Shown one piece after another: positions 8,389 to 60,921 of a stretch of DNA of 64,000 nt. The notes below the pieces were generated by a model. It was not told where the DNA came from, did no database searches, and saw only the letters and a program-made list of their open reading frames with translations. Within the stretch, counting starts at the first letter, position 1. Every line of letters begins with the position of its first letter. Source of the DNA: Acaryochloris sp. CCMEE 5410 (GTDB lineage Bacteria; Cyanobacteriota; Cyanobacteriia; Thermosynechococcales; Thermosynechococcaceae); contig NZ_AFEJ02000002.1 of NCBI RefSeq assembly GCF_000238775.2, positions 1,597,501-1,661,500 on the forward strand. Reading direction: 5' to 3'. Made by a program: the position numbers and the translations under genes.

Positions 8389-8988
8389 TTAGCGAGAACG
8401 GTTCATCTTCCGTTTAGCCAACACACCAACAACGCCCAAGCAGGCAAATAAACCAGCGGTAGCCGCTTCAGCAGGCTCAGGAACGCTAGGAGGAGCTGGA
8501 TCAGGGGGGTCAATGACTGGAGGTGCAGGGTCAGCGGGATCATCATCACCGCCAACAACGAACGGAAGTGCTGCCGCTGCCGCACCTGCTGGAATTAATG
8601 CAGCCGCCAAAGGAAAACCTGCGGCAGCGGGTAAACCCCCTTCAGGAGCGACACCGCCAATGCCACAATCAATCAACCCATTCTCTGCAATGAGGGTCTG
8701 AGAGGACAGCAGCCCGGTTGGCACATCCGAGGTGGTCGCATTAGCCAGCAAGTTGGGACCTAAATCTTGGCTTAATGGGCCAGAAGACTCTTGCAAAGCT
8801 TCAGGGGAAATAATGGGCTCTTCTTCGCAAACATCGCTTTGAGCGGTCTCTGTATTGAGCTTTGAGTCAGCCTCAATCGAATCCCCAAGACCAAGCTGAG
8901 CAGCATGGCTGAAGGGAGTATTTATAGCGTTATACAAAACGACCAGCGATAAGGCAGTCAATGAGCCACATGTCTTTAACAATTTCAT
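8389..8988 (-). CDS. secreted protein with PEP-CTERM sorting signal
   Basis: From the ATG at 8988 the protein begins MKLLKTCGSLTALSLVVLY, a good signal peptide ending near SHAAQ. The frame is open to an earlier ATG at 9048, but that would put 20 charged residues ahead of the signal, so I prefer 8988. The middle is low-complexity, with an Ala-rich hydrophobic block and an Asp/Pro-rich stretch (DDDPADPAPPVIDPP). The C-terminus is SVPEPAE, then AGLFACLGVVGVLA, then KRKMNRSR. This PEP motif, hydrophobic helix and basic tail define an exosortase-type PEP-CTERM signal. The mature function is unknown. No exosortase is in this window. Confidence 0.75.
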   Translation of the reverse strand: MKLLKTCGSLTALSLVVLYNAINTPFSHAAQLGLGDSIEADSKLNTETAQSDVCEEEPIISPEALQESSGPLSQDLGPNLLANATTSDVPTGLLSSQTLIAENGLIDCGIGGVAPEGGLPAAAGFPLAAALIPAGAAAAALPFVVGGDDDPADPAPPVIDPPDPAPPSVPEPAEAATAGLFACLGVVGVLAKRKMNRSR

Positions 8989-9504
8989 AGTTGAGATTCG
9001 ATCCTTAGATGGTTTTCCCCGCTTGATATTCGAAGACGAAGTTACCATAAATCTGCGAAATAAGCTGTGTAAGCCAATACTTATGCAAATTTTCAGGTAC
9101 TCGCTACATTATGCCAAACAACTCCGAAAAAGCAACTAGAGTCAGTTGAAATTAGGATGGAAAATTATTCCCTGGACAAATTTTAGAGCCCTCACTCCTT
9201 TGGATTGGAAAAATTCAGCAAACCTTAATCTCTTGAAACAGAATCCAAATTTTTCCCAGAGGGGAACCGTAATACCTGTGAGAGCAACACATCCACAGCA
9301 GTGGAAATCCCTTCGCCTTAAAAGTTTAAGGTTTGTGAACAATCTCTTCTGGTATTCTCTCAATCCAGAGATCATTTGCGTAGTTCCGATAAATAAAGCC
9401 TAGTCAAGAATTTAGAATATTCTGTCATGCCTATGCCGCTTTAACCCTAATGATTCAAAATTCTCTGAACTTAAGCAAATCGAGTAAAACGCTTTAAAGC
9501 AGCA

Positions 9505-26877: not shown

Positions 26878-29800
26878 ATGACTTCTAATGCAGCATTTCA
26901 GGTAGCTAAGCAACGGATTGCAGAGGCAAAGAGGATAGCAGCACCTACCCTTGATCTTTGTAGTTTAAAACTAACAGAAGTCCCCAAAGAAATTGGGCAA
27001 CTTACCAATCTGATAGCACTTTCCTTATCCGGCAACCAACTAACAGAAGTCCCCAAAGAAATTGGGAAACTTACCAATCTGATAGCACTTTCCTTATCCG
27101 GCAACCAACTAACAGAAGTCCCCAAAGAAATTGGGAAACTTGCCAATTTAACCCAACTTCGTCTCCACCAAAATCGACTAACGGAAGTTCCTGAAGAAAT
27201 TGGGCAACTTGCTAGCTTGACAGAGCTTAGCCTCTTTCAAAATCAACTAACAGAAGTTCCTAAAGAAATAGGACAACTCATCAACCTGACGGAACTTTAC
27301 CTCTCCCAAAATCAGCTGATGAAGATACCCAAAGACCTTGAACGACTCATCAGTCTAACAAAACTTTACCTCTCCCAAAATCAACTAACAGAAGCCCCGA
27401 AAGAACTTGGGAAACTCATCAATCTAATGGAGCTTTACCTCTCCCAGAATCAACTAACAGAAGTACCCAAGGAATTCGGACAACTCACCAGCCTAATAAA
27501 GCTGAACCTCTCCCAAAATAGACTGACAGGGGTTCCACAAGAACTTGGAGAACTCAAAAGCCTGACGGAACTCCATCTCTCCCAAAACAAACTCATGGAG
27601 GTACCAAAAGAACTTGGAAAACTTACCAACTTAACCTGGCTTCACATCGACCAAAATCAACTAACAGAGATTCCTGAAGAAATCGGACAACTTACCAAGC
27701 TAACAGAACTTTCCCTCTCCCATAATCAATTAAAAGAAGTACCTAAAGAACTCGGACAACTTGCTAGGCTTACTCGTTTTTCCCTCAGCCAAAATCAACT
27801 AATAGAGATACCAAAAGAAATCGGGAAAATCGCCAAATTAATCTGGCTTCGCATCGACCAAAATCAGCTAACAGAGGTTCCCAGAGAACTTAGTCAACTC
27901 GTCAATTTAACTCGACTCCACCTCCACCAAAATCAACTAACGAAAATTCCTAAAGAGCTTGGGAAAGTTACCAAGCTAACAGAACTTTCTCTCTCCCAGA
28001 ACCAACTAATAGAAGTACCTAAAGAACTTGGGCAACTCATCAATCTAGTGGAGCTTCGCCTCAACCAAAATCAATTGACTAAGGTTCCCAAAGAACTTGG
28101 AAAACTCACCAATCTGACTCGACTCCACCTCTCCTATAATAAGCTGATAGAAGTCCCCAAAGAACTTGGAAAACTCGCTAGCCTGAGGGAGCTTGACCTC
28201 GACCAAAATCAATTGACTAAGGTTCCCAAAGAACTTGGAAAACTTGCCAAGCTGGTGATACTTGACCTCAGCAATAACTCACTCAACCCTGAGCTGTCAG
28301 CAGCGTATGAGCAAGGACTAGAAACCTTTTTTGCCTATTTACAGGCGCAGGATGAGAACCAAATTATCTTGAATGAAGCCAAGCTCATCTTGATTGGTGA
28401 AGGGGAAGTCGGTAAGACTAGCTTATTGGGCGCACTTCGGGGTGATCCGTGGGTCGAAAATCGAGAAACGACGCATGGTGTCGAAGTCGATATCAAGTCC
28501 CTAGCTGTTCAAGATACTAATAGCGGCACCGACATCACCTTTAATGGCTGGGATTTTGGGGGCCAAAATATCTATCGCCATACCCACCAACTTTTCTTTA
28601 CTGCCCCAGCAATTTATCTTGCCGTTTGGAATCCTCGCCGCGGCCCAGAGCAATGCCGGGTCGATGAGTGGATCAAAATGGTCAAACATCGTGCCTATGA
28701 TGATGCTCGGCCTGATGTAAAGCCCTATATTTTTGTTGTAGCAACCCATGGTGGCCCCAACGAGCGGCTTGATCATATAGACGAACAAGCCCTCCGAGAT
28801 GAATTTGGGGATTTAACTGTCAGATTTCACCATGTGGATAGCAAAACTAAGTTTCAGCTTGATGACCTTAAACAGTCCATTACCAAGACTGCTGCCCAAA
28901 TCCCGCAAATTGGACGGGCTGTACCTGCGAGTTGGCAGCAAGTGCTAGAGGCGATTCGTGAGCGCAGCCAAACCGAACCCTGGATTACTTACGAACAGTT
29001 TCAAATTCTCTGCACCGAACAGCAGGTGGATTTAGCCTTAGCCAAAACCTACGCAGCCATCCTCAACGAATTAGGGCATCTGATTCACTACAACACAGAT
29101 CCGACCCTCAAAGATACCGTTATCCTCAAGCCCGAATGGCTAAGTAAAGCCATCAGCTTTGTTTTAGAAGATCCTCAAGTCAAAGCTCAGAATGGCCTGG
29201 TCCGCCATAGCCGTCTCAGCCATTTATGGAATGACCCAGCTAGAGGCGATGATCGCTATCCTCTCGAACTGCATCCCGTCTTTTGCAAGCTGATGGAACG
29301 ATTTGATCTGTCCTATCAAGTCGAACTGCCCGATGTCGATGCCCAAACCACCAGCTTAATTGCCCAACTGGTCCCCAGCAAACGACCTGAGAACTGGGAA
29401 CAAGCTTGGATACTACAACCCGGTGATACAGAACGAACCCAAGTCTGTCGTCTGCTCGATAAAGAAACGGGACGCACCGTAGAAGCTGAAGGATTAATGT
29501 ATCGGCTAATTGTCCGCTTACATCGCTATTCCCTGGGCCGTCAAAATTACTACGATAGCCGTCACTGGAAAAATGGCCTGATTCTAGACGATGGTTTTAA
29601 CGGTCGCGCCTTTATTGAAGAAATTGGAGGTGACCTCTATGTCACCGTCCGCGCCGCCTACCCCACAGGCTTCCTCGGGCATCTCTGTGCCGAAATTATA
29701 TGGCTCGTCAAATCCTTCTGGAAAGGCATTGACCCTCGCCTCTATATTCCCTGCCCTACCGAAAACTGTAAAGGCTTGCTAGAGCGGGAGGAAATCCTAG

Positions 29801-30585
29801 AGTTCAAGAACCAGGGCATGCCCAAGGTGCGCTGTGCCGTCTGCAAAACCTTCCACCCCATTGATGGTTTAATGGCCACCACTGTTGCCAAACCGGAATG
29901 GCAAGACGCTGTATCGGAACTAAAGCAAGGACAGCAACAGATCCTCACCGCCTTCAATACCAACTTTGATGCCCTTAGCGTTCAGCTCAAGATCCTAATG
30001 AGCCAAGCTGACGAGCAATTCCAAGCCCTCCTCACCACTCTGACTGATCCAGCTAAAGACGGTCCTCGCCTCTTTAGCTTTGAACCCGTCGATCCAGGCT
30101 TTTGGGATAAACCCAACTGGATAGCGCAAAAATTCCGGCTCACCCTCTGGTGCGAACATAGTCGGTTGCCCTTACCAGTAATCAGTGGTGAAGCCAAGAC
30201 AGGTGTTTACGAACTAGAAATCACTCACGATTGGCTGAAACGAGCCTCTCCCTTTCTCCGAATTCTGTCGGTTACCCTCAAACTAGCCTTACCCATCGCC
30301 ATTCCCGGCACCAAGCTTGCCACCGATGACGACGAGTACAAGGCCATCACCGAACAGCTAGAATTTGGCATCAAATCATCCACCTCGTTAATTTCAGGCA
30401 GCGAAAAAGTGGGCGATTGGTTAGTGGCAGGGGACGCCACCGAATTAAACCAGGCCAGTACAGCAACCCAAAACGTAATTCGTGCCCAAGGCTCAGTTCT
30501 ACGAGAGCTTCATGCATTACTCAGGGAGAAAGATCCAGCCAGTAGCTTTGGTGGCCTCGAACGAGTCCAAAATAGGGTTTGCTGA
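26878..30585 (+). CDS. ROCO protein (LRR-Roc-COR), 3' end truncated by insertion sequence
   Basis: A 1235-residue predicted signalling GTPase. Residues 32-468 are leucine-rich repeats, then a Roc GTPase domain begins near 499 with P-loop GEGEVGKTS and G3-type WDFGGQ. A COR domain follows at about 680-900. A CxxxxC...CxxC cysteine cluster lies near residues 959-990 (CPTENCKGLL, RCAVCKTF), then a C-terminal helical/beta module. Bacterial Roco proteins are GTPases that cycle between monomer and dimer, and the LRRs bind unknown partners. The last three codons (RVC) and the stop come from the terminal repeat of the insertion sequence beginning at 30575. The native tail KRREFLWVHPNYVSEY is found intact after the element. 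The protein is otherwise complete and may still fold. Confidence 0.93.
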   Translation: MTSNAAFQVAKQRIAEAKRIAAPTLDLCSLKLTEVPKEIGQLTNLIALSLSGNQLTEVPKEIGKLTNLIALSLSGNQLTEVPKEIGKLANLTQLRLHQNRLTEVPEEIGQLASLTELSLFQNQLTEVPKEIGQLINLTELYLSQNQLMKIPKDLERLISLTKLYLSQNQLTEAPKELGKLINLMELYLSQNQLTEVPKEFGQLTSLIKLNLSQNRLTGVPQELGELKSLTELHLSQNKLMEVPKELGKLTNLTWLHIDQNQLTEIPEEIGQLTKLTELSLSHNQLKEVPKELGQLARLTRFSLSQNQLIEIPKEIGKIAKLIWLRIDQNQLTEVPRELSQLVNLTRLHLHQNQLTKIPKELGKVTKLTELSLSQNQLIEVPKELGQLINLVELRLNQNQLTKVPKELGKLTNLTRLHLSYNKLIEVPKELGKLASLRELDLDQNQLTKVPKELGKLAKLVILDLSNNSLNPELSAAYEQGLETFFAYLQAQDENQIILNEAKLILIGEGEVGKTSLLGALRGDPWVENRETTHGVEVDIKSLAVQDTNSGTDITFNGWDFGGQNIYRHTHQLFFTAPAIYLAVWNPRRGPEQCRVDEWIKMVKHRAYDDARPDVKPYIFVVATHGGPNERLDHIDEQALRDEFGDLTVRFHHVDSKTKFQLDDLKQSITKTAAQIPQIGRAVPASWQQVLEAIRERSQTEPWITYEQFQILCTEQQVDLALAKTYAAILNELGHLIHYNTDPTLKDTVILKPEWLSKAISFVLEDPQVKAQNGLVRHSRLSHLWNDPARGDDRYPLELHPVFCKLMERFDLSYQVELPDVDAQTTSLIAQLVPSKRPENWEQAWILQPGDTERTQVCRLLDKETGRTVEAEGLMYRLIVRLHRYSLGRQNYYDSRHWKNGLILDDGFNGRAFIEEIGGDLYVTVRAAYPTGFLGHLCAEIIWLVKSFWKGIDPRLYIPCPTENCKGLLEREEILEFKNQGMPKVRCAVCKTFHPIDGLMATTVAKPEWQDAVSELKQGQQQILTAFNTNFDALSVQLKILMSQADEQFQALLTTLTDPAKDGPRLFSFEPVDPGFWDKPNWIAQKFRLTLWCEHSRLPLPVISGEAKTGVYELEITHDWLKRASPFLRILSVTLKLALPIAIPGTKLATDDDEYKAITEQLEFGIKSSTSLISGSEKVGDWLVAGDATELNQASTATQNVIRAQGSVLRELHALLREKDPASSFGGLERVQNRVC
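26971..28281 (+). repeat. 19 tandem 69-bp units encoding leucine-rich repeats
   Basis: The 1311 bases equal exactly 19 x 69, so every repeat encodes 23 residues with no insertion or deletion (consensus LTEVPKELGKLTNLTxLxLS, then xNQ). Units 1 and 2 (26971-27039 and 27040-27108) are nearly identical in DNA, and the start of unit 3 keeps the same sequence. This indicates a recent in-register duplication by slippage or recombination. Confidence 0.92.
30569..30574. repeat. target-site duplication, left copy (AAAATA)
   Basis: AAAATA here and again at 32268-32273 flanks the insertion sequence. Removing the element together with one copy restores the reading frame GTC CAA AAT AAA CGC, which continues into the native ROCO tail. 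The match extends two further bases (CC) on the outer/left side, but those bases also belong to the right terminal repeat. Confidence 0.85.
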
Positions 30586-36792: not shown

Positions 36793-36916
36793 TATAACAA
36801 GCGATGAAAAGTATCCAACGGGAGCAAAATTAAATACTTTTCCAAACTCTAAACAAACAGACTTTATTTTCAATCCAAAAACAAAGTCTGTTCAACGTAA
36901 ACGATTAAATACCTTA

Positions 36917-36929
36917 GTGCAAGTGAGGT
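36917..36929 (+). promoter_or_regulatory. conserved translation-start element GTGCAAGTGAGGT (copy 1 of 4)
   Basis: The identical 13-mer precedes precursor genes 1, 2 and 3 at 36917-36929, 37424-37436 and 37827-37839, each time 6 bases before the ATG. GAGGT is the ribosome-binding core. Identity beyond that core reflects duplication of gene plus leader, or a shared control site. A fourth copy at 38521-38533 has no gene behind it. Confidence 0.85.
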
Positions 36930-36935
36930 CATATC

Positions 36936-37169
36936 ATGTCTGAATTATTTACTGACTTGTCTGATCAACAGCAAGAACTCGTTGCTGGTGGTTCAGTCAC
37001 TCTACTCAACGTCAACGCGACCAACTTCTACTCAAATACTGAAATCCTTGGGGCTGCTGGAGCTGCTGGCTCTACTCCAGGTGGATCAGTTGCTGTTGGT
37101 GAAATTGCTGGTGCGAACCAAGAAATTTATACCAATGCTCTTGGTGTTCAATTTGGTAATGTTTCCTAG
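36936..37169 (+). CDS. double-glycine leader peptide precursor 1 (bacteriocin-like)
   Basis: A 77-residue precursor. The leader MSELFTDLSDQQQELVAGG (residues 1-19) has the hydrophobic/acidic pattern and the Gly-Gly that C39 peptidases cut. The mature part would be 58 residues, beginning SVTLLNVNATNFYSNTE and ending VQFGNVS, with Gly/Ala-rich middle parts and no Cys. The lack of Cys excludes lanthionine or disulfide bridges. It resembles cyanobacterial small proteins annotated as bacteriocins of this leader type, and the cognate HlyD and C39 exporter lie downstream. Activity (antimicrobial, signal or surface fibre) is not shown by the sequence. Confidence 0.88.
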   Translation: MSELFTDLSDQQQELVAGGSVTLLNVNATNFYSNTEILGAAGAAGSTPGGSVAVGEIAGANQEIYTNALGVQFGNVS

Positions 37170-37442
37170 GTACAGACTAACTCTAGTTTAATCATTACCA
37201 ACATTCCGTTGTATTGAGAACAACCAAGAGCTGGTCTTAATTGTGAACCTAGTACTCCACCACATAGAAGACGACAGGTTCCTAAAAGCTAAGATGCATT
37301 GACATCAAGCATTTTGCTTGCGGTGATTTTATCGAAATCACTGTGGCACAGTCCTAGGATATTCACAATTGTTTTGATCCCAGCTTTTGGTTAGTTCCAA
37401 GCATTATTCACATTCATTTTTTTGTGCAAGTGAGGTTACATC

Positions 37443-37676
37443 ATGTCTGAATTATTTACTGAATTGTCTGATCAACAGCAAGAGCTTGTAGCTGGTGGTT
37501 CAGTCACTCTACTCAACGTCAACGCGACCAACTTCTACTCCAATACTGAGATCCTTGGGGCTGCTGGGGCTGCTGGCTCCACACCAGGTGGATCAGTTGC
37601 TGTTGGCGAAATTGCTGGTGCGAACCAAGAAATTGATACTAAAGCACTTAGTGTTCAATTCGGTAACGTTGCTTAG
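37443..37676 (+). CDS. double-glycine leader peptide precursor 2 (near-copy of precursor 1)
   Basis: Also 77 residues. It differs from precursor 1 at only five positions: D7E in the leader and Y65D, N67K, G70S and S77A in the last 13 residues of the core. The GG cut site, the N-terminal core and the Gly/Ala block are unchanged. The preceding 13-base start element is conserved too, so gene and leader were duplicated together. It is separated from precursor 1 by 273 bases that contain two small hairpins (37306-37320 and 37323-37341), which could attenuate or process the message. Confidence 0.88.
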   Translation: MSELFTELSDQQQELVAGGSVTLLNVNATNFYSNTEILGAAGAAGSTPGGSVAVGEIAGANQEIDTKALSVQFGNVA

Positions 37677-37845
37677 GCATCATTTTTTGCCCTAACAACA
37701 TAGTTCTATTTTGTAAGACTACTGAAAGCAAGTGTATACAATACCGAACAAACTAACAATAATTCTTTTTTAGTTTGAAATTAAGCTTTTCAGCAGTACT
37801 TACATCTAATTCCATTAATCTCTTAAGTGCAAGTGAGGTCATATC

Positions 37846-38079
37846 ATGTCTGAATTATTTACTGAATTATCTGATCAACAGCAAGAACTCGTTGCTGGTG
37901 GTTCAATCACATTGATCAACGCCAATCTAACCAGCTTTAAATCCAATACTGAAGTCCTTGGGGCTGCAGGTGGAGCTGCTTCTGGCCCTGGTGGATCTGC
38001 CGCAGTTGGTGAAATTGCTGGTGCCAACCAAGAACTTCATACCACTGCCATTAACTTTCAGTATGGCAACGTACTATAG
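37846..38079 (+). CDS. double-glycine leader peptide precursor 3 (diverged paralogue)
   Basis: 77 residues. The leader MSELFTELSDQQQELVAGG is identical to that of precursor 2, but the core is diverged: SITLINANLTSFKSNTEVLG, then a Gly/Ala block, AVGEIAGANQELHTTAINFQ and YGNVL. Leader conservation with core divergence is the usual signature of a family processed by one peptidase and diversified at the product. There is no Cys. The same GTGCAAGTGAGGT element precedes it. It lies 169 bases after precursor 2. Confidence 0.88.
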   Translation: MSELFTELSDQQQELVAGGSITLINANLTSFKSNTEVLGAAGGAASGPGGSAAVGEIAGANQELHTTAINFQYGNVL

Positions 38080-38236
38080 TCATCCATTTGACTGAGTTTT
38101 AAGTTTCAAAACCACACGATTAGGGCTGTATAAATTGCATGAATTCTTTGAGTGAACAATGCTTGTCAAGTTCATTATGGAATCACAATTTCATTCAGCC
38201 CTATTCCAGTTTGTCCCAACGTTCCAATCACCCATT

Positions 38237-38482
38237 ATGTCTGGTCAATCCTCTGAGTTATTTATAGAGCTATCTGAACATGAGCAAGAAGGTGTTGCAG
38301 GGGGCACAACAACACTATTCAACTTAAATCAGACGGAATTCTTCTCTCAGTTAAACCTATATCAAGCGAGTGGCGTAGCCACTGCTGGCCCCAGCGGTGC
38401 TAGCGCATCTGGGTCAATCACCCACATGAACCAAACCATAGACACTAAGGCATTCAACTTCGCCTTCGGCCAGATTGATTGA
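38237..38482 (+). CDS. double-glycine leader peptide precursor 4
   Basis: About 81 residues from the ATG at 38237. In-frame ATGs at 38177 and 38159 would add 20 or 26 residues, and none has a strong ribosome site. The leader is SELFIELSEHEQEGVAGG and the core begins TTTLFNLNQTEFFSQLNLYQ. The C-terminal block MNQTIDTKAFNFAFGQID aligns with ANQEIDTKALSVQFGNV of precursor 2, so it is a true family member. Unlike 1-3 it lacks the 13-base start element upstream. A copy lies just after it instead. Confidence 0.82.
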   Translation: MSGQSSELFIELSEHEQEGVAGGTTTLFNLNQTEFFSQLNLYQASGVATAGPSGASASGSITHMNQTIDTKAFNFAFGQID

Positions 38483-38520
38483 TACAAAAAATCGGGAAGG
38501 CAGGTATCTCAATCATCCCA

Positions 38521-38533
38521 GTGCAAGTGAGGT
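38521..38533 (+). promoter_or_regulatory. orphan copy of the GTGCAAGTGAGGT element
   Basis: Identical to the three elements before precursors 1-3, but followed by TTTTGGATATATCC with no ATG or precursor frame. The next gene (the HlyD homologue) starts 175 bases later. It may be the scar of a deleted precursor gene, or a site with a role beyond ribosome binding. Confidence 0.75.
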
Positions 38534-38708
38534 TTTTGGATATATCCTGCTTTCCCTTAAGTGGCTAAAACATTGAGATTCCAGTGTTTTAGCTATTCAG
38601 AGAGCTTTTAGCTTCTCAAGGATTTAATTATAACAGGCATTAAAGATTAGCCCGTTTCTTGACCTAACCCCTTATCAATCTCCTTAATGCATAGCCCCAT
38701 AAGATTCC

Positions 38709-40013
38709 ATGAATACCCTCCAACCTGATCAACTTCACTTTGTTCAGGAAGATGAATTTTTACCCTCCATTAGCCCGTGGATTTCAATGGGGGGAATGGT
38801 TTTGGTGCTGGTATTCGGTGCCGCTGTTGCCATTTCCTCTACCCTCAAATTCAGCATTACTGTCAAAGCCCCTGCAGCCATTCGGCCTGCAGGTGGCCTG
38901 AGTATCGTCCAAAGTGGCATTGACGGCACCATTACTCATATCAACGTGGAGGAAAACCAGGTCGTCAAAAAAGGCGATCTGTTTGCACAGCTAGACGATT
39001 CAGGGTTGCAAACCCGCAAAAGCCAACTGCAAGGAGATATCCAATCTATTACTCTGCAGAGATATCAGATCAATGCTCAACTCAGAGCGTTAGACCATCA
39101 AATTATTGCTGAAACCCGGTTAGTCAGCCGTTCCATCGCCGCCGCAGAAGCCAACTTAACCTCACACCGTCGTCGCTACCAAGATCTTAAAATCAGTACC
39201 GAAGCAGACCTAGAAGAAGCCCAAGCCGGGTACCACCTGGCTTCTGAAGAGTATCTACGCTTCAAAGAACTCGAGGAATCAGGAGCCATTGCCAAGCTGC
39301 AGGTCAAAGAGAAAGAAGCCTCTTTGAAAGCAGCATCCGCCAGGATTAAGCGTCTCAAGGCTGCAACCAATCCGTCAGACGCCACTATTGATCAAGCCTT
39401 AGAACAAATTGCCCAGGAGAAAGCCAGAGGTAGTGTCACCCTTGCAGGCCTCAATCAACAAAAAGAACAGCTGATGCGCACCCGCATCGAAGCCCAAAAG
39501 CAGCTCCAACGGACTCAAAAAGAGCTACAGCAAATCGATAACGAACTCAAAGGCACTAAAATCCGGGCTCCCATTGATGGCACCGTTTTACAGCTCAATC
39601 TGCGCAATCCCGGCCAAGTGGTGCAGCCTGGAATCCCCATCGCTCAAATTGCCCCCCGCAACGCTCCTTTGATTATCAAGGCTAGGGTCAACGCCCAAGA
39701 TATCAACCAGGTGAAAACAGGGCAGATGGTTCAAATGCGCGTTTCAGCCTGCCCCTACACGGACTACGGCACCTTACAAGGAACCGTTATGAAGGTGTCA
39801 CCGGATGCCATTCCGGTGAATGATGCTAGCGGTCCAGCCACCAGTCCAGCTTTTTATGAAGTTACCGTTCAACCTCGAACCTTATATATGGGCAATCAAC
39901 AGCGCTGGTGCCGCCTGCAATTCGGGATGGAGGGTCGAGCCGATATTGTGTCACGCCAAGAAACCGTTCTCCAATTTGTATTGAAAAAAGCCCGCTTAAT
40001 GTCCAACTTTTAA
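38709..40013 (+). CDS. HlyD-family membrane fusion protein (peptide export adaptor)
   Basis: A 434-residue adaptor for a peptide ABC exporter. One N-terminal membrane helix (about residues 28-48) is followed by a lipoyl-like half-motif (IVQSGIDGTITHINVEENQV). A long alpha-hairpin coiled coil follows at about 100-280, then the second half (KIRAPIDGTVLQLNLRNPGQ) and a beta-barrel domain. This is the HlyD layout, linking the inner-membrane exporter to an outer-membrane channel. It lies 28-34 bases before the C39 exporter gene, and the two are almost certainly co-expressed. No TolC-type gene is in the window. Confidence 0.92.
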   Translation: MNTLQPDQLHFVQEDEFLPSISPWISMGGMVLVLVFGAAVAISSTLKFSITVKAPAAIRPAGGLSIVQSGIDGTITHINVEENQVVKKGDLFAQLDDSGLQTRKSQLQGDIQSITLQRYQINAQLRALDHQIIAETRLVSRSIAAAEANLTSHRRRYQDLKISTEADLEEAQAGYHLASEEYLRFKELEESGAIAKLQVKEKEASLKAASARIKRLKAATNPSDATIDQALEQIAQEKARGSVTLAGLNQQKEQLMRTRIEAQKQLQRTQKELQQIDNELKGTKIRAPIDGTVLQLNLRNPGQVVQPGIPIAQIAPRNAPLIIKARVNAQDINQVKTGQMVQMRVSACPYTDYGTLQGTVMKVSPDAIPVNDASGPATSPAFYEVTVQPRTLYMGNQQRWCRLQFGMEGRADIVSRQETVLQFVLKKARLMSNF

Positions 40014-40047
40014 ACTTGCCTGATCAAACGATAAAGGCACCTTGTCC

Positions 40048-42237
40048 ATGCCCTCTTTAATGCTCCTCAATCCCCTACTCAAATCACGCAAAAGCTACCA
40101 GTGTGTCAAGCAATGGAGCGAAGAAGATTGTGGAGCCGCCTGCCTAGCCTCAATCTGCAAGTATTATGGCCGTCTACTAAGCATTACCCGTAGTCGGGAA
40201 GTGGTGGGAACAGGACAACTTGGCACCACCCTTTTAGGTCTAAAAAGAGGCGCTGAAGCTTTAGGGTTCAATGCCCGTTCTGTGAAAGCATCAGAAGCTT
40301 TGATTGATCGGCTGCAGGAAATCCTACTGCCAGCCATTATCCACTGGAAAGGCTATCACTGGGTCATTCTCTATGGCAAACGCGGTCGCAAGTATGTTGT
40401 GGCCGATCCAGGCGTGGGGATTCGGTATCTCACCAAACAGGAACTTCTCGAATCATGGAATGGCATCATGCTCTTACTGGAGCCTGATATCGATCGGTTT
40501 CATGATCGAGGCGAAGACGAGGAAAAGTCCGGTGGATTTTCTCGCTTCCTGGGTCGAATTTGGCCCTATCGTACGATTCTGAGCCAAGCCCTTTTGATCA
40601 ATATTGTCCTGGGATTATTGGCCCTCTCCAGTCCTTTCCTCATCCAGATTCTAACCGATGATGTCTTGGTCCGTCAGGATATGGAGTTGCTGACGGTCGT
40701 AGTAGTGGGGGTTGTCATCTCCCAAGTGTTCAGTAGTAGCCTACAAATCATGCAGTCGAACTTGATAGCTCACTTTAGCCAGCGGCTGCAGCTAGGTTTA
40801 GTCTTAGAATTTGGTCGCAAAATCCTGCAACTCCCCTTGAACTACTATGAATCGCGCAGAAGCGGGGAGATTGTCAGCCGTTTGCGCGATATTAACGAAG
40901 TCAATCAACTCATATCGCAAATCGTCGTTCGGGTGCCCAGTCAAGTTTTTGTTGCCTTGATTTCCATTGGCTTCATGCTATTTTACAGCGCAAGTTTAAC
41001 CCTTGTTGCTGCAGTGATTGCCATGATCATGGCAATCTCAACCTTGCCATTTTTGCCGATATTGCGAAAGAAAACTCGCAATTTACTGATTCTATCTTCT
41101 GAAAATCAAGGGGTCTTAGTTGAGACGTTCAAAGGAGCGTTAGTCCTGAAAACGACTAACGCAGCGCCCCAGTTTTGGGAAGAGTTTCAATCTCGATTTG
41201 GCCGACTAACCCACCTCACCTTCAGCACCATCCAACTGAGTGTCCTCAACGGTACCTTTACTCAGTTGATTTCTAGTATTGGCAGTGTCGCCCTTTTAGC
41301 CACGGGTAGTTTGCTAGTCATCAGGGAAGAAATCAGTATTGGCCAGTTGCTGGCCTTTAACACCATGCAAGGCAATCTGCTGGCCTTGATGACGACCATC
41401 ATTGGCCTAACGGATGAATATTTTCGGGCTCAAACGGCAATTGGCCGTATTTTAGAGGTCATTGATGCCACACCAGAATCCGTCGGAGAGGCTAACAAAC
41501 CCTTTGCCCAGCTCTCTGGAGACCATGATATTACCTGCTCCCATTTAAACTTTCACCATGCCGGGCGAGTCGTTCTCCTGGATGATTTTTCCTTGACACT
41601 ACCTGGGGGGAAGGTAACCGTCATCATTGGGAAATCCGGCTGTGGTAAAAGCACCCTGGCCAAGGTGATCGCAGGCCTTTATCAAACCCAGTCTGGAACC
41701 GTCAGAATCGGTCCCTATAATTTACAGGATTTATCTATCGTCGCTCTCCGGCAGCAAGTCTCGTTTGTCCCCCAAGAACCTCATTTTTGGAGTCGCTCCA
41801 TTATCGAGAACTTTCAGCTAGGCAACCCGCAAGTCTCGTTTGAACAAATCGTAAAGGCCTGCCAAATTGCGGATGCTGACAGCTTTATCAGCGAATTACC
41901 CAATACGTACCAGACCGTTTTAGGTGAGTTTGGTGCCAACTTATCGGGTGGGCAGCGGCAGCGGTTAGCCATTGCTCGGGCCATTGTTAACGATCCACCC
42001 ATCTTGATTTTGGATGAATCCACTGCAGGCTTAGATCCCGTGAGCGAGGCCGAAGTCCTAGATAAGTTACTGGCCTATCGCCAAGGCAAAACGACCATCA
42101 TGATTTCCCACCGCCCCAGCACCATTAAACGAGCAGAGTGGTTGATTCAAATGGAAAAAGGCCAGCTGCTTTTGGAAGGAGACTTTGCCTCCCTAGCTAC
42201 TCAACCTGGAGAACATCAGAAGTTTTTAAACCACTAA
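40048..42237 (+). CDS. C39 peptidase-containing ABC exporter (bacteriocin/peptide type)
   Basis: About 729 residues. The N-terminal C39 protease has the catalytic Cys in WSEEDCGAACLASICKYYG (Cys28 from this start), the His in GYHWVILYG and the Asp in VADPGVG. It would cut leaders after Gly-Gly while exporting the core. A six-helix membrane domain follows at about 165-450. The ATPase domain has Walker A GKSGCGKST, signature LSGGQRQR and Walker B ILILDESTAGLD. A TTG two codons upstream is an alternative start. Its position between four precursor genes plus HlyD and the fifth precursor identifies its substrates. Confidence 0.94.
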   Translation: MPSLMLLNPLLKSRKSYQCVKQWSEEDCGAACLASICKYYGRLLSITRSREVVGTGQLGTTLLGLKRGAEALGFNARSVKASEALIDRLQEILLPAIIHWKGYHWVILYGKRGRKYVVADPGVGIRYLTKQELLESWNGIMLLLEPDIDRFHDRGEDEEKSGGFSRFLGRIWPYRTILSQALLINIVLGLLALSSPFLIQILTDDVLVRQDMELLTVVVVGVVISQVFSSSLQIMQSNLIAHFSQRLQLGLVLEFGRKILQLPLNYYESRRSGEIVSRLRDINEVNQLISQIVVRVPSQVFVALISIGFMLFYSASLTLVAAVIAMIMAISTLPFLPILRKKTRNLLILSSENQGVLVETFKGALVLKTTNAAPQFWEEFQSRFGRLTHLTFSTIQLSVLNGTFTQLISSIGSVALLATGSLLVIREEISIGQLLAFNTMQGNLLALMTTIIGLTDEYFRAQTAIGRILEVIDATPESVGEANKPFAQLSGDHDITCSHLNFHHAGRVVLLDDFSLTLPGGKVTVIIGKSGCGKSTLAKVIAGLYQTQSGTVRIGPYNLQDLSIVALRQQVSFVPQEPHFWSRSIIENFQLGNPQVSFEQIVKACQIADADSFISELPNTYQTVLGEFGANLSGGQRQRLAIARAIVNDPPILILDESTAGLDPVSEAEVLDKLLAYRQGKTTIMISHRPSTIKRAEWLIQMEKGQLLLEGDFASLATQPGEHQKFLNH

Positions 42238-42261
42238 TCAATCATCATTAGGAGAAAGATC

Positions 42262-42579
42262 ATGGCTCAATTACAAAACAGTCCGCAACTTCCGCAAATC
42301 ATCGATCCACCATCAGACTTATTTGTTGAATTATCTGATCCAGAACAGGAGACCATTTCAGCTGGATTTGGCTTAACCTATCTCTATTTTGAGCAGGAAA
42401 TCATTTCGTCGTCATCGTCCAATACGACGGAAATTGACAATCTATCTCCTGGCTCCGGTAGCGGTCGTACCTCTCAGCAAGCCAACTATGATTCGAAACG
42501 CACCACGTTTGCCTTCGGCGGATTAATTCCCATTCGTTCGGTTTCTTCGTTTATTGCCTCCATTCTCAAATTGTTTTAG
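42262..42579 (+). CDS. divergent fifth precursor-like peptide downstream of the exporter
   Basis: 105 residues with a strong ribosome site (AGGAGAAAGATC before the ATG). The leader PSDLFVELSDPEQETISAG aligns with the family, but the cut site is Ala-Gly instead of Gly-Gly. The core keeps the family pattern (LTYLYFEQEI, then the C-terminal ANYDSKRTTFAFGG) and then adds about 17 residues, including IRSVSSFIASILKLF, likely an amphipathic helix. It is 24 bases after the exporter. It may be a specialised product, an immunity-type or a regulatory peptide. No Cys is present. Confidence 0.75.
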   Translation: MAQLQNSPQLPQIIDPPSDLFVELSDPEQETISAGFGLTYLYFEQEIISSSSSNTTEIDNLSPGSGSGRTSQQANYDSKRTTFAFGGLIPIRSVSSFIASILKLF

Positions 42580-42660: not shown

Positions 42661-44001
42661 ATGACTAAGACGCTGGTGACAAATACTGTTTTAAGGCAGG
42701 ATAGTGGAGAGAGTGACGTTTCATCTCATCAGGTGATCCGATTGGATCGCTCCCTGAGTTCTTTGAGCACAGGTGAAGCGTCTGTATCATTAGGCCCCAT
42801 CATGTTGCAGTCTCTTGGACAACTTGTTTACACCAGTTTTCCTAACGTCGGGTTTAGGCACTTATCGAGTCCCCACATCCCGCAAGAGATTCAACATGCA
42901 TTTGTTCATCAAGTCGTCTACTTACGCTGGAACTCGTACAATCCCCCAGCTGCTGACTATCGGGCGGCCTACCTCTATCAAATTAATACAGACAATACCT
43001 TATTCGGGTGGTTGTATGGCGATGCCACCGATGATGTTGGTCGTCATGTTCCCTATTTTATTGGCTACCACCTGGCAGAACCGTTGACGGAAGATTATCT
43101 AAATAGTATCTATATCTGCCTACAGCGAGGACCAACAGCGATTTCTAGCAAGGAAGAGCTGAGTCAGGGGGTTTTAGAAAATATCTCTATTCCCGATATT
43201 CGCGGTTATCCCCCTGCTCGGATTGGCGTTGATATCCCCGATGATATTCGCAACTACAGCTGCACGTTTTTGCAAATGCAAGAGTTGCTGAATATCTTTG
43301 TGCCAGCCAGTGAACGTCAGTCCAGACTTTCCTCCCCGGCTGTCCCCTCTGAAGAAGTAGACCTCACCCAATCCCTCTCCAAGCAAAAAACCGTTATTCA
43401 GCCCCAGAAAAATCAGCCTGGGACGACGCTTCAACCCCGCCAATCTCAGCCGGCCCAACCTCAGTCGGCCCAGCTTCAACCGGCCCAGCCTCAGCCGGCC
43501 CCCATGAACTATCTAGAGCAAATTCTCTATGAATTAATTGCCAAACCCATTGGGATTCAAAGCGCATTTTTAGTGTCCATAGAAGGACTACCCATCACCT
43601 CTCCCATTGGTATTAGCGAAAATAGCGCCCTGATTATTGCTGGTACTATGCTGTATCTCGCTAGAAGTACTCACGAAGAATTGCAGTGGCAAGGCATTGA
43701 GAAAATTTCAGTCCAGGCCCAAGAAGGATACGTCATTTTAGCGAACTGTACATCAGATATTTTTCTGCTGGTCAAAGCAGCTAAGGCTTTAACGGGCTTA
43801 CTAGATGGCGAGATCAACCGCACGATCAAGCGTCTCCAAACCGCCCTCCAAATTGAACATTTGGATAAAGATACTGAGTTATCTCCAGAAGCCCAGCATG
43901 AGTTAGTGACCCAACTTAATTTAGATCAGGCCGCCTCAGACTTCTTAGAGGAATCCACCGATAACTTTGACATGCAATATCGGGGCAACTCTATCCAATA
44001 G
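42661..44001 (+). CDS. Roadblock/LC7 domain protein with novel N-terminal domain
   Basis: 446 residues from the ATG at 42661. A TTG at 42604 is in frame, but the ATG gives the better N-terminus. Residues 1-220 form a domain I do not recognise (ADYRAAYLYQINTDNTLFGW, AEPLTEDYLNSIYICLQRG). A Gln/Pro linker with repeated QPAQPQ units follows at about 240-280. A Roadblock/LC7 fold spans about 282-400: LVSIEGLPITSP, ALIIAGTMLYLARST and YVILANCTSDIFLLVKA. Roadblock proteins such as MglB bind and activate small GTPases. The next gene encodes a GTPase-like protein, so a functional pair is likely. Confidence 0.8.
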   Translation: MTKTLVTNTVLRQDSGESDVSSHQVIRLDRSLSSLSTGEASVSLGPIMLQSLGQLVYTSFPNVGFRHLSSPHIPQEIQHAFVHQVVYLRWNSYNPPAADYRAAYLYQINTDNTLFGWLYGDATDDVGRHVPYFIGYHLAEPLTEDYLNSIYICLQRGPTAISSKEELSQGVLENISIPDIRGYPPARIGVDIPDDIRNYSCTFLQMQELLNIFVPASERQSRLSSPAVPSEEVDLTQSLSKQKTVIQPQKNQPGTTLQPRQSQPAQPQSAQLQPAQPQPAPMNYLEQILYELIAKPIGIQSAFLVSIEGLPITSPIGISENSALIIAGTMLYLARSTHEELQWQGIEKISVQAQEGYVILANCTSDIFLLVKAAKALTGLLDGEINRTIKRLQTALQIEHLDKDTELSPEAQHELVTQLNLDQAASDFLEESTDNFDMQYRGNSIQ

Positions 44002-44155
44002 AGACTCGCTTTAGCCCTCCATGGGTATCGGTTTTCCCATGACTCTTCTATCATCCATGTCGAATCGTAGCCTCTTTAGGCTTCTATTTTTGGCATTTCA
44101 TCACATTCAATTTTCTAGTCCCCCCTTAATTTCTAGTCGTTAAATCGTTAAGACC

Positions 44156-45523
44156 ATGAGCTTATTATTTGGAGATGATCCTAAAACCCTGAATTTGCTG
44201 AGCATTGGTGAGCGGGGCGTCGGTAAAACTGTTTTTTTAGTCGGTAGCTATACCGAGTCAAACCATCGCTACGAAGGAGATCAGCCCAAAAAACGATGGT
44301 TTGACTGTGACGATCACGGTGCTCATAAAAATATCCAAGGGGTCTTGAACTATATTGCGCAAACGGGCCATTATCCCCCTCCCACCATGAAGATCGCTGA
44401 CTTCACCTTTAGCTTGAAGCAGAAACGGCTGTGGGGGACACAAACCCTCTGTCACTTCCGGTGGTGGGATATGCCCGGAGAAATCTGTGATTTGAACAAC
44501 CGTCAATTTCAATCGATGGTGTTGAGTTCCCAGGGTTGTTGCGTCTTTATCAATGCTTATTCCCTGATTCACGAACCGGCCTATTTAGAATCGGTCAAAG
44601 ACATGATCGAATTGGTGACTGCGATCTCATCTTTGATCAAACATCACAACCTGCAGTATCCGATGGCCCTGATCTTCACCCAATGCGATCGTTTAGAGGC
44701 AGGCCCCTTAGGCCAATTGCAAATTGAGAAATGTCTAGAACCCCTGATTATTCGCCTAGAGAATGCCCGCACCAACTATCGACGGTTTTACTCCTCTATC
44801 CCGATTGTGCGCATCGACGGCACCCCCGTTCTACGGGCCAGTGGCTCTGCCGATGGCCTGGTGTGGGTCACCTCTGAACTGTGTAAAGCTCGGTCAGTCC
44901 AATCTGGACAAGATTTGGCCACGAGTTTATCCCAAAGTACCTCCCTCGATCATCAATTTGTCCCTACAGTGCGACGCCCCGGCTTTACTCTGGGACTTAT
45001 TTCAGCTGGCGTGGTTGGCTTCTTAACCGTGGGGTTTGCCCTGACATCCCTCTGGTCCACCCAACCTCCCCAACAGGCACAAGCGACCCAAAGAACGCTC
45101 CAAGATCACCACAATGTGTTGACCCGAGATCCGAATAATTTAGACTCCCTGATTTCGGTCTACGACCATTATGTAGAGGTGGGTCAACTGGCTAAAGCGG
45201 TGCCGTTATTAGAGAAAATTGTGGCTCAAAAGCCGACCCATCTCGATTTAAAATTTAACTTGGCCGACCTCTATGAATTAACCGGAGAAAAGCAAAAAGC
45301 CGAAGCGACCTATGATGGGATTCTGACAGCCCAGCCCCAGGATGTTAAAGCCATTGTGGGGAAAGCAATTCTCAGGGGCGAAGCAGGCGATTTATCCACC
45401 GCTCAATCCCTATTTCAGCAGGCCGAAAACATCGCAGCGACTCAAGAGGCCAAAGGCAAAATCAAAGAGATTGCAGCCCAAACGCTGCAGACACAAGCGC
45501 CCGTCAACCCCAAAACGGAATAA
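44156..45523 (+). CDS. membrane-anchored GTPase-like protein with C-terminal TPRs
   Basis: 455 residues. The P-loop is GERGVGKT (residues 18-25), the switch-II-like motif is WWDMPGE (103-109) and the base-recognition motif is FTQCD (174-178), a variant of NKxD. A single membrane helix (about 278-300) is followed by tetratricopeptide-type helices (about 310-440, with LDSLISVYDHYVEVGQLAKA and LKFNLADLYELTGEKQKAEA). The order GTPase, membrane anchor, TPR is unusual. It lies 154 bases after the Roadblock gene, on the same strand as the peptide export genes. It could couple energy state or cell polarity to peptide secretion; this is inference. Confidence 0.82.
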   Translation: MSLLFGDDPKTLNLLSIGERGVGKTVFLVGSYTESNHRYEGDQPKKRWFDCDDHGAHKNIQGVLNYIAQTGHYPPPTMKIADFTFSLKQKRLWGTQTLCHFRWWDMPGEICDLNNRQFQSMVLSSQGCCVFINAYSLIHEPAYLESVKDMIELVTAISSLIKHHNLQYPMALIFTQCDRLEAGPLGQLQIEKCLEPLIIRLENARTNYRRFYSSIPIVRIDGTPVLRASGSADGLVWVTSELCKARSVQSGQDLATSLSQSTSLDHQFVPTVRRPGFTLGLISAGVVGFLTVGFALTSLWSTQPPQQAQATQRTLQDHHNVLTRDPNNLDSLISVYDHYVEVGQLAKAVPLLEKIVAQKPTHLDLKFNLADLYELTGEKQKAEATYDGILTAQPQDVKAIVGKAILRGEAGDLSTAQSLFQQAENIAATQEAKGKIKEIAAQTLQTQAPVNPKTE

Positions 45524-59283: not shown

Positions 59284-60921
59284 TCATCTCCTATTCAGAA
59301 AACAGGTACAAATATATGGAAATAAATTGTGAAAGCTATCTCTCCAATTATCCCATCTCTGTAGCGCATACCCACAAGTTGGAAGATGTCCCGCTGGAGC
59401 TTTTACACTGAAATTGAAGTCATCATATCCTGACAACCAATTGTCGTTTTTTCGCCATCCTACATGGTCGCTAAATTTTCGGAACACTGAATTGCTAAAT
59501 TTGCCTGCCTGTCCACCTACATCATTACTGCACCATATTTTCTGCTGTACGCAAAAGCCAAATTTCTGTTCGCTATTGTCAAACCACAATTGGTTAATCG
59601 CAAAGATAACTGCGCAAGGCAACTGCAACTGATCACTAGCAGTAAAACAAGATTCTGAATCCTTCCCAACTGCCTCGAGGATTAACTGATATGTTACGGA
59701 ATCAGCTTCTCTCCAATTTGAATTTTTAAACGCACGCTTTAAGTCGTTATAATCAAGTACTTCTTGTATAACAGTTCTTTCACCAGTGGAAAGAGTTTGA
59801 TCAGGATTTAGATCTCTTTCAGGTAAAGAACAAGAAATATTACCTGACTGAAAACTACTCGGATTTTTTAAGCTTTTACAATTATTTTTAGAGGTCTGAT
59901 TTATATGACTTAAAAAATCATTTAATCTATATTTTTCACTATATTTCAATGATTCATCTTTTTTCAATTCCATCATTTTAATTCCCAGCCGTTGAATCGC
60001 CTTTATTGCATCATTATCTTGACCTGCAGTAACAGCATTCACTTGAAGCCAGCATTGCTCTGCTAATTGCAGAGATATAAGTTGGTTCTCTATATCTAAT
60101 TGCTCAATATATTCAGCACGATAAGCATCATTCTTCAGCGCTGATATATCTAGTGGTGTAGCATATTTAGGCATCAAAAGGGCATGAGAACGCTCAATTG
60201 GTTCGGCAATAATATAGGGAATTTGTTGAGAGCTAGCAGAACTATAAATCTCCAAAATTGTAGGAACTTGCCTTTTTAAAAAATGATTTAACTGCTTTAC
60301 AGTAGCACATCTGCCTTTAGCTCCCAATCCTTCTAAAAGAGCAAAAGTAAAAGCTCCTTGCTGAAGCGTATCAACCTCGTATGATGACTGATTAGGCTGA
60401 CAAGAAAAAATACTAATGATGCCTGTACTACGTACTTCTGTTTCAGTCTGACGACCTATTCCTTCTCCTTTGATACCTTGACTACGGCAAGCATCCAGAA
60501 TTAAGACAACATTACCGACATTACAATGTCGTAAATAATCAGTAATGTCATGAATAGAGATACCTGTATTTTCTACGTCTTCTGGATCTCCGTCTAAAGG
60601 CATTAGATAATCCCGATCACAATGCCTAATTCCATGACCACTGAAGAAAAACCAGAAGTTATCATCCTCTTTTAAGGAAAATTGAGATAACCTATCAGAA
60701 ATCTGTCGCAAAACTCGTACTAAGTTCGATCTAAAAGGCTTAGTAGATTTTCCATCAAGATTGGGCGAATTAGAAGTAAAAAGGAAAATATTCTCTTGCG
60801 TAAAACCCGCTTCAGTAGCAAGAAAACTTGAAAAGAGTTTCGCATCTCTTTCTGCATATTTCAAAGGCTGCAAAAAATGATATTTATTAATGCCAATGAC
60901 AATTGCTCTATTATCTGCCAT
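59284..60921 (-). CDS. caspase-like peptidase (C14) fused to a GUN4 domain
   Basis: 545 residues. The N-terminal caspase/orthocaspase p20 domain (1-250) starts RAIVIGINKYHFLQPLKYAE and has the dyad H96 (FFFSGHG) and C145 (LILDACRS). A helical middle (about 265-390) follows. Residues about 395-535 match the GUN4 porphyrin-binding fold: LKRAFKNSNWREADSVTYQL, QKFGFCVQQ, HVGWR and FSVKAPAGHLPTCG. Caspase-GUN4 fusions occur in cyanobacteria. The GUN4 part could sense a tetrapyrrole or act as an effector module. The next gene, 8 bases upstream, is Pepco-like and co-transcribed. Confidence 0.9.
   Translation of the reverse strand: MADNRAIVIGINKYHFLQPLKYAERDAKLFSSFLATEAGFTQENIFLFTSNSPNLDGKSTKPFRSNLVRVLRQISDRLSQFSLKEDDNFWFFFSGHGIRHCDRDYLMPLDGDPEDVENTGISIHDITDYLRHCNVGNVVLILDACRSQGIKGEGIGRQTETEVRSTGIISIFSCQPNQSSYEVDTLQQGAFTFALLEGLGAKGRCATVKQLNHFLKRQVPTILEIYSSASSQQIPYIIAEPIERSHALLMPKYATPLDISALKNDAYRAEYIEQLDIENQLISLQLAEQCWLQVNAVTAGQDNDAIKAIQRLGIKMMELKKDESLKYSEKYRLNDFLSHINQTSKNNCKSLKNPSSFQSGNISCSLPERDLNPDQTLSTGERTVIQEVLDYNDLKRAFKNSNWREADSVTYQLILEAVGKDSESCFTASDQLQLPCAVIFAINQLWFDNSEQKFGFCVQQKIWCSNDVGGQAGKFSNSVFRKFSDHVGWRKNDNWLSGYDDFNFSVKAPAGHLPTCGYALQRWDNWRDSFHNLFPYICTCFLNRR

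What the first reader, a model, noticed from the sequence alone, without database searches (positions are those of the whole stretch)
36936..42579. Multi-peptide, cysteine-free double-glycine secretion cluster
Seen: four precursors with almost invariant leaders ending VAGG and variable cores, an HlyD adaptor, a C39 exporter with an intact Cys/His/Asp site, and a fifth precursor-like gene, all on one strand. Known: C39 exporters cut after Gly-Gly and export the core. The cores have no Cys and there is no modification enzyme in the window, so these should be unmodified peptides. Inference: a family of secreted Gly/Ala/Asn-rich peptides sharing the C-terminal pattern NQxxxTxAxxxxFGxx, possibly antimicrobial, signalling or fibre-forming.
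Basis: partly seen in the sequence, partly recalled or inferred. Interest (0 to 1): 0.85.

Follow-up and report, generated by a model that had tools for sequence, protein, structure and literature searches.

The report
Secreted-peptide cluster with conserved RNA hairpin
An Acaryochloris cyanobacterium carries a known kind of peptide-secretion gene cluster (related to one that builds biofilms in Synechococcus), and its peptide genes share a ribosome-binding sequence that recurs in the loop of a conserved RNA hairpin in front of the exporter genes, which points to an undescribed RNA control circuit.

Summary
In detail: four double-glycine precursors, HlyD, a C39 exporter with Cys28/His104/Asp120, and a fifth precursor-like gene, all without cysteine. 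The cluster itself is a known kind. Precursors 1-4 pass NCBIfam NF038167 'CTB family bacteriocin', the layout is Wang's group III, and the exporter is 54% identical to PteB, which secretes the biofilm peptides EbfG1-4 in Synechococcus elongatus. The cores are not recognisably related to EbfG. (1) Gene 5 is a conserved companion directly 3' of the exporter in 6/6 Acaryochloris and about 35 other cyanobacterial loci. (2) A block, AGTGCAAGTGAGGT, before precursors 1-3 recurs in the loop of a hairpin between array and hlyD (38488-38558). Nostocales have the equivalent hairpin (covariation supported) with their own precursors' block in its loop. Rfam has no such family. (3) An element in all seven Acaryochloris genomes examined, absent from about 380 others, carries two antisense copies of the block; G-U pairing suggests the antisense strand is the RNA. 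Best reading: secreted, beta-rich, probably matrix-forming peptides whose production is matched to export by an RNA circuit. Export is near certain; circuit and peptide function are inferred.

The parts
36916..36929 (+). block AGTGCAAGTGAGGT at the ribosome-binding site of precursor 1
36936..37169 (+). precursor 1, 77 aa, leader MSELFTDLSDQQQELVAGG, CTB family
   Evidence: NF038167 54.6 bits, cut-off 32
37423..37436 (+). block (TGTGCAAGTGAGGT) of precursor 2
37443..37676 (+). precursor 2, 77 aa, CTB family; low-confidence model of the core is one long beta-hairpin
37826..37839 (+). block AGTGCAAGTGAGGT of precursor 3
37846..38079 (+). precursor 3, 77 aa, CTB family
38237..38482 (+). precursor 4 (start corrected from 38159); distinct core type next to hlyD, conserved at this position in L039, L040, L041; no block before it
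38488..38558 (+). conserved RNA hairpin between array and hlyD; its loop carries the block
   Evidence: covariation in four Acaryochloris and 34 Nostocales; CM R1 recovers it
38520..38533 (+). copy of the block in the hairpin loop, with no gene behind it
38709..40013 (+). HlyD-type periplasmic adaptor; 38% identical to the HlyD next to PteB
40048..42237 (+). C39 peptidase ABC exporter (PCAT, short type), Cys28 His104 Asp120
   Evidence: PF03412 E=9.6e-33; 54% identical to PteB; tree
42262..42579 (+). gene 5: conserved post-exporter companion precursor; leader ends SAG|F; low-confidence model beta-hairpin plus C-terminal helix
42661..44001 (+). roadblock/LC7-like protein (likely start 42661); linked to the cluster in Acaryochloris and in L043, L076, L086, L093
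   Evidence: PF03259 E=5e-4, below cut-off
44156..45523 (+). GTPase-like protein (P-loop GERGVGKT) with TM and TPR repeats; linked as above

Best explanation
This is an Acaryochloris member of the cyanobacterial group III double-glycine secretion systems, the group that holds PteB/EbfG. The C39 domain cuts each precursor after Gly-Gly and, with HlyD and an outer-membrane channel encoded elsewhere, exports a small acidic Gly/Ala/Asn-rich core without cysteine. I infer that the cores are beta-rich peptides that assemble outside the cell as surface or matrix material, as EbfG1-3 do, and that gene 5 (beta-hairpin plus C-terminal helix) is a conserved partner or anchor. I further infer that peptide synthesis and export are matched by an RNA circuit. 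A trans-acting RNA binds the block that overlaps the ribosome-binding site of precursors 1-3, and the same block, shown in the loop of the hairpin between array and hlyD, acts as a second target or decoy. In Acaryochloris the candidate RNA is the conserved element at G000:C1:4024696-4024851 (minus strand), with two antisense copies of the block. Shown here: the genes, their families, the hairpin, the block-loop identity, the antisense element. Inferred: transcription, pairing in the cell, peptide function.
For: Export: PF03412 and NF038167 above cut-offs; exporter 54% identical to PteB over 712 aa and in one clade with it against long-type C39 exporters; PteB's cysteine is needed for efficient EbfG secretion and EbfG1-3 form amyloid (PMC4997328, PMC9981879). 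Hairpin: 34 Nostocales sequences, 95.4% of cells paired, 14 double changes against 3.6 in shuffles, 0/500 as high; four Acaryochloris, 2 pairs with compensatory change; one strong hit per genome in 14 of 388 cyanobacterial genomes, all Nostocales family f32, most of them on a contig where CTB precursors were listed; no Rfam match. Block: longest word shared by loop and precursor upstream region averages 11.4 nt in Nostocales and 12-14 nt in three of four Acaryochloris, against 5.5 for shuffled loops and 6.0 for control upstream regions; across lineages 8-10. Of 29 sites of ACGTAAGTGAGG in 13 of 20 Nostocales genomes, all but about one lie before a double-glycine precursor or in the hairpin. 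Antisense element: 7/7 Acaryochloris genomes, absent from about 380 others apart from one marginal hit; stem pairs 109/112 as minus-strand RNA, 90/112 as plus-strand; terminator-like site on the minus strand at its 3' end; predicted duplexes -38.8 to -50.9 kcal/mol with precursors 1-3 and hairpin, about 3-6 SD beyond shuffles, none for precursor 4, gene 5, hlyD or C39.
Against: No expression data. EbfG and CTB profiles match only over the leader, so a matrix role is by analogy. AlphaFold models have low confidence (pLDDT 64-65) and no significant Foldseek match. No promoter consensus at the antisense element. No antisense counterpart was found in Nostocales. In G188 the dispersed precursors lack this block although the antisense element is present. 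Loci such as L065, L069 and L091 have the block but no hairpin. Hairpins were first collected by the AAGTGAGG word, so loop invariance is partly by selection; the model search afterwards gave 41 of 42 with it.
Confidence: 0.5

Rival explanations
1. The peptides are bacteriocins that kill related cyanobacteria, for instance by forming pores, as the NCBI family name says.
For: NCBIfam name 'CTB family bacteriocin'; weak Bacteriocin_IIc similarity of precursors 2 and 3 (18.4 and 22.5 bits, below cut-off 27.1); Foldseek's weak hits for precursor 2 are mostly beta-hairpin stems of pore-forming proteins (E>=0.09); many similar precursors per genome.
Against: No antimicrobial activity is shown for the family in the papers found; no immunity gene seen; cores acidic (pI 4.1-4.7) with 0-1 Lys/Arg in precursors 1-4 and no beta amphipathicity above shuffles; microcin E492 model at 14 of 50 bits required; the exporter's characterised relative serves biofilm peptides.
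Confidence: 0.25
2. The hairpin is only a terminator or mRNA-stabilising stem between array and exporter, the block is only an extended ribosome-binding site, and their identity is a relic of duplication.
For: Nostocales hairpins are followed by a T-rich stretch; related hairpins without the block lie 3' of other precursors; the block contains GAGG.
Against: Loop block in 41 of 42 model hits at this position; the loop follows the lineage form of the block; stems change in compensation while the loop stays fixed; Acaryochloris hairpins have no T run; a conserved antisense element exists.
Confidence: 0.3
3. Block and hairpin are recombination sites that shuffle precursor cassettes, in the manner of integron cassettes.
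For: Arrays vary in number and core between species; orphan precursors are dispersed in G188 and in Nostocales; the block stands at the 5' edge of each gene.
Against: No recombinase in the cluster; G188's dispersed copies do not share the block; compensatory stem changes suit an RNA.
Confidence: 0.07
4. The exported cores are intercellular signals.
For: C39 exporters also process pheromones; HetC, a C39 exporter, is needed for heterocyst differentiation (PMC10986499).
Against: Cores of about 58 aa in several near-identical copies, no receptor gene seen nearby.
Confidence: 0.1

Closest known systems
EbfG1-4 / PteB / HlyD of Synechococcus elongatus PCC 7942 (PMC4997328, PMC9981879)
   Same: four small precursors next to a C39 exporter and HlyD; exporter 54% and HlyD 38% identical
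   Different: cores unrelated beyond the leader; EbfGs do not hit NF038167; gene order PteB then HlyD; no post-exporter gene 5 and no AAGTGAGG hairpin found
CTB family bacteriocin, NCBIfam NF038167
   Same: precursors 1-4 score above the curated cut-off
   Different: gene 5 is below it (20 bits); no antimicrobial activity known to me
Cyanobacterial bacteriocin cluster group III (Wang et al. 2011, PMC3140520)
   Same: short-type C39 ABC exporter, HlyD, several precursors, no second ABC exporter seen; A. marina and S. elongatus each have one
   Different: hairpin, block, gene 5 and the roadblock/GTPase pair were not found in the passages read
HetC of Nostoc PCC 7120 (PMC10986499)
   Same: C39 peptidase ABC exporter
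   Different: long type with a cNMP domain, no HlyD nearby, substrate unknown
Yfr1 sRNA (RF01116)
   Same: present in this genome; its CCUCAC could pair with GUGAGG of the block
   Different: only 6-7 nt pairing; duplex energies near shuffles for most targets

Membership tests
CTB family bacteriocin (NF038167) | score above curated cut-off 32 bits | tested here: met
   precursors 1-4: 54.6, 57.9, 54.7, 61.5 bits; gene 5 not met, 20.1
CTB family bacteriocin (NF038167) | antimicrobial activity implied by the name | not testable with these tools
   no activity data found
C39 peptidase-containing ABC exporter (PCAT) | C39, membrane and ATPase domains, with catalytic Cys, His, Asp | tested here: met
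   PF03412, PF00664, PF00005 above cut-offs; Cys28, His104, Asp120 in the sequence
Wang group III cluster | short-type C39 exporter + HlyD + precursors, without LanM, SurA or a second ABC exporter | tested here: met
   other window ORFs were read by eye, not scanned
PteB/EbfG biofilm system | exporter related to PteB | tested here: met
   54% identity; one clade against long-type C39 exporters
PteB/EbfG biofilm system | precursor cores homologous to EbfG | tested here: not met
   profile match confined to leader, probability 38%
PteB/EbfG biofilm system | required for biofilm | not testable with these tools
   needs mutants
E492 group microcin (NF051486) | score above cut-off 50 bits | tested here: not met
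   14.3 bits for precursor 3
Known structured RNA (Rfam 15) | hairpin or antisense element matches a family | tested here: not met
   only chance-level matches
Trans-acting antisense sRNA | conserved RNA with terminator and complementary seed | tested here: inconclusive
   conservation, strand asymmetry and complementarity met; no promoter consensus, transcription untested

The most novel reading that the evidence does not exclude
Group III double-glycine precursors in Acaryochloris and Nostocales form an RNA-controlled regulon: a shared block at the ribosome-binding site of clustered and dispersed precursors is mirrored in the loop of a conserved hairpin before the exporter genes, and in Acaryochloris a dedicated antisense sRNA with two seeds reads both.
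Probability: 0.4. Interest if true: 0.78.

Novelty: new variant of a known kind. Interest (0 to 1): 0.6.

Why it matters
How cyanobacteria match many secreted peptide genes, some scattered over the genome, to one exporter is not known to me. A shared translation-start block with a mirror copy in a conserved hairpin beside the exporter would be a simple answer, testable in Nostoc or Acaryochloris. It also gives a sequence tag for finding secreted-peptide genes of unlike core. Gene 5 and the linked roadblock/GTPase pair name further parts of a system now annotated only as 'bacteriocin'.

Tried and rejected
Yfr1 as the factor that reads the block: present, but pairing is short and duplex energies lie near shuffles for most targets. 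A double-block element in Nostocales: pattern search gave hits at chance level and tandem repeats only. EbfG-like amyloid motif by DNA pattern: useful only for locating the S. elongatus ebfG locus. Block after precursor 4 as a relic of a lost precursor: rejected, since it is the loop of a conserved hairpin. Transmembrane beta-barrel stem: no amphipathicity above shuffles. The BLAST extent of dispersed cassettes was spoilt by tandem neighbours and is not used. Group V/NHLP exporters did not enter the tree (the pattern missed them), so the tree separates PteB and this exporter only from long-type C39 exporters.
Full report
OBSERVATION. The window lies in an 8.09-Mb genome whose nearest exporter relatives are Acaryochloris genomes (89-95% identity). 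The genes are as described. Precursors 1-3 share the leader MSELFT(D/E)LSDQQQELVAGG; precursor 4 has SSELFIELSEHEQEGVAGG and most likely starts at 38237. Cores have no Cys. Precursors 1 and 2 are nearly the same peptide (4 of 58 residues differ), 1 and 3 differ at 19 of 58. Gene 5 ends its leader in SAG|F.

KNOWN FAMILY. Precursors 1-4 exceed the NF038167 'CTB family bacteriocin' cut-off and gene 5 does not. HlyD and the C39 exporter are clear, with Cys28, His104 and Asp120. NF038167 is found over its cut-off in 46 of 388 cyanobacterial genomes. The layout is group III of Wang et al. (PMC3140520), where A. marina MBIC11017 and S. elongatus PCC 7942 have one such cluster each. The genome has three C39 loci; the other two lie in longer open frames (994 and 1052 codons).

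LINK TO A CHARACTERISED SYSTEM. The S. elongatus ebfG locus was identified in G031 by the mature N-termini published in PMC4997328. PteB is 54% identical to the window exporter over 712 residues, the HlyD 38%, and the two exporters fall in one clade against long-type C39 exporters. EbfG peptides are needed for biofilm, PteB's cysteine for their efficient secretion (PMC4997328), and EbfG1-3 form amyloid (PMC9981879). EbfG cores are not recognisably homologous to CTB cores: the profile match is confined to the leader, and EbfGs do not hit NF038167. So: works like, exporter related, but not the same peptide family.

PEPTIDES. Across Acaryochloris the array differs in number and core, while the peptide next to hlyD (precursor 4 type) is kept in L039, L040 and L041. 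AlphaFold gives a long beta-hairpin turning at PGG for precursor 2 and a beta-hairpin plus C-terminal helix for gene 5, both at low confidence, without significant structural matches. No beta amphipathicity beyond shuffles. I read these as beta-rich secreted peptides; matrix is the better analogy, bacteriocin the main rival.

GENE 5. A precursor-like gene lies within about 100 bp 3' of the exporter in all six Acaryochloris loci and in about 35 further loci, mostly Nostocales. Its core differs from the array peptides (profile match confined to the leader); it has no Pfam family and hits NF038167 only weakly, in 21 of 22 members. Acaryochloris and L043, L076, L086 and L093 also keep a roadblock-like and a GTPase-like gene next to it.

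BLOCK AND HAIRPIN. AGTGCAAGTGAGGT (one mismatch for precursor 2) precedes precursors 1-3 and overlaps the ribosome-binding site. A fourth copy at 38520 has no gene behind it but forms the loop of a hairpin, 38488-38558. With up to one mismatch the 14-mer occurs six times in the genome, four of them in this cluster. The hairpin is at the same place in L039, L040 and L041, with an invariant loop and two compensated stem pairs. In Nostocales the array genes are preceded by (A)CGTAAGTGAGGC, and between array and hlyD there is a hairpin whose loop holds CGTAAGTGAGG. Its stem covaries: 14 double-change cells against 3.6 in shuffles, 0 of 500. A covariance model finds 42 such hairpins at that position, 41 with AAGTGAGG, and recovers the Acaryochloris hairpins at the right place with 16-20 bits. 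In 388 genomes it gives one strong hit per genome in 14 genomes, all Nostocales family f32, most of them on contigs that also carry listed CTB precursors. Related hairpins without the block lie 3' of other precursors. Loop and precursor upstream region share words of 11.4 nt on average in Nostocales and 12-14 in three of four Acaryochloris, against 5.5 for shuffled loops and 6.0 for control upstream regions; across lineages only 8-10. In Nostocales the 12-mer also marks orphan precursors with unlike cores: of 29 sites all but about one are precursors or hairpins.

ANTISENSE ELEMENT. The only other exact copy of the 14-mer in this genome lies in an intergenic element (G000:C1:4024696-4024851) with two copies of its core 22 nt apart. 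It is conserved in all seven Acaryochloris genomes, its flanks are not, and it is absent from the other roughly 380 genomes scanned apart from one marginal hit. Its 16-pair stem pairs 109/112 as minus-strand RNA but 90/112 as plus-strand RNA, because the changes are G-U on the minus strand. That strand is antisense to the block, carries the seeds 5' of the stem, and ends in a terminator-like site. Predicted duplexes with precursors 1-3 and with the hairpin stand about 3-6 SD beyond shuffles; not so for precursor 4, gene 5, hlyD and C39. G195 (L038/L201), where no MSELF-type array gene or hairpin was seen next to the exporter, has a changed seed. No Rfam match to hairpin or element, and no paper found.

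READING. Export of processed cores is near certain (about 0.9). That block, hairpin and antisense element belong to one control circuit is about even for Acaryochloris and open for Nostocales, where no reading factor was found. That the peptides build surface or matrix material is an inference from PteB/EbfG (about 0.5).

LIMITS. No expression data. Hairpins were first gathered by the AAGTGAGG word. Relatedness among Nostocales inflates counts. Absence from Rfam and from an open-access library does not prove novelty.

Noticed in passing
L129-L138 (genome G188): At least a dozen CTB precursors with near-identical leaders are scattered, singly or in pairs, over about ten contigs far from the exporter; their ribosome-binding region (CTTTGAGGT in many) differs from the window's block.
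   Followed up: partly
L170, L175, L178, L182, L192, L193, L195, L196, L197: Orphan double-glycine precursors with unrelated cores in Nostocales share the ACGTAAGTGAGG block before the start codon.
   Followed up: partly
L049 13076-14097, L078 13242-14081, L080 13189-14035: Downstream of the exporter, Nostocales loci carry further precursors, many followed within about 60 nt by a related hairpin whose loop lacks the block.
   Followed up: partly
L039 196-1134, L142 25-267: A second core type (FSLRNINETDFTQK...) under the same invariant leader in one Acaryochloris.
   Followed up: no
window 42661-45523: Roadblock-like and GTPase/TPR-like genes stay next to the cluster in Acaryochloris, a Leptolyngbyaceae and some Nostocaceae; might place or gate secretion.
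   Followed up: partly
window 26878-30585: Long leucine-rich-repeat protein with a GTPase-like domain.
   Followed up: no
window 8389-9048: Protein with a PEP-CTERM-like tail (VPEPA...TM...RKMNR).
   Followed up: no
window 59284-60921: Caspase-like (C14-type) protein by eye.
   Followed up: no
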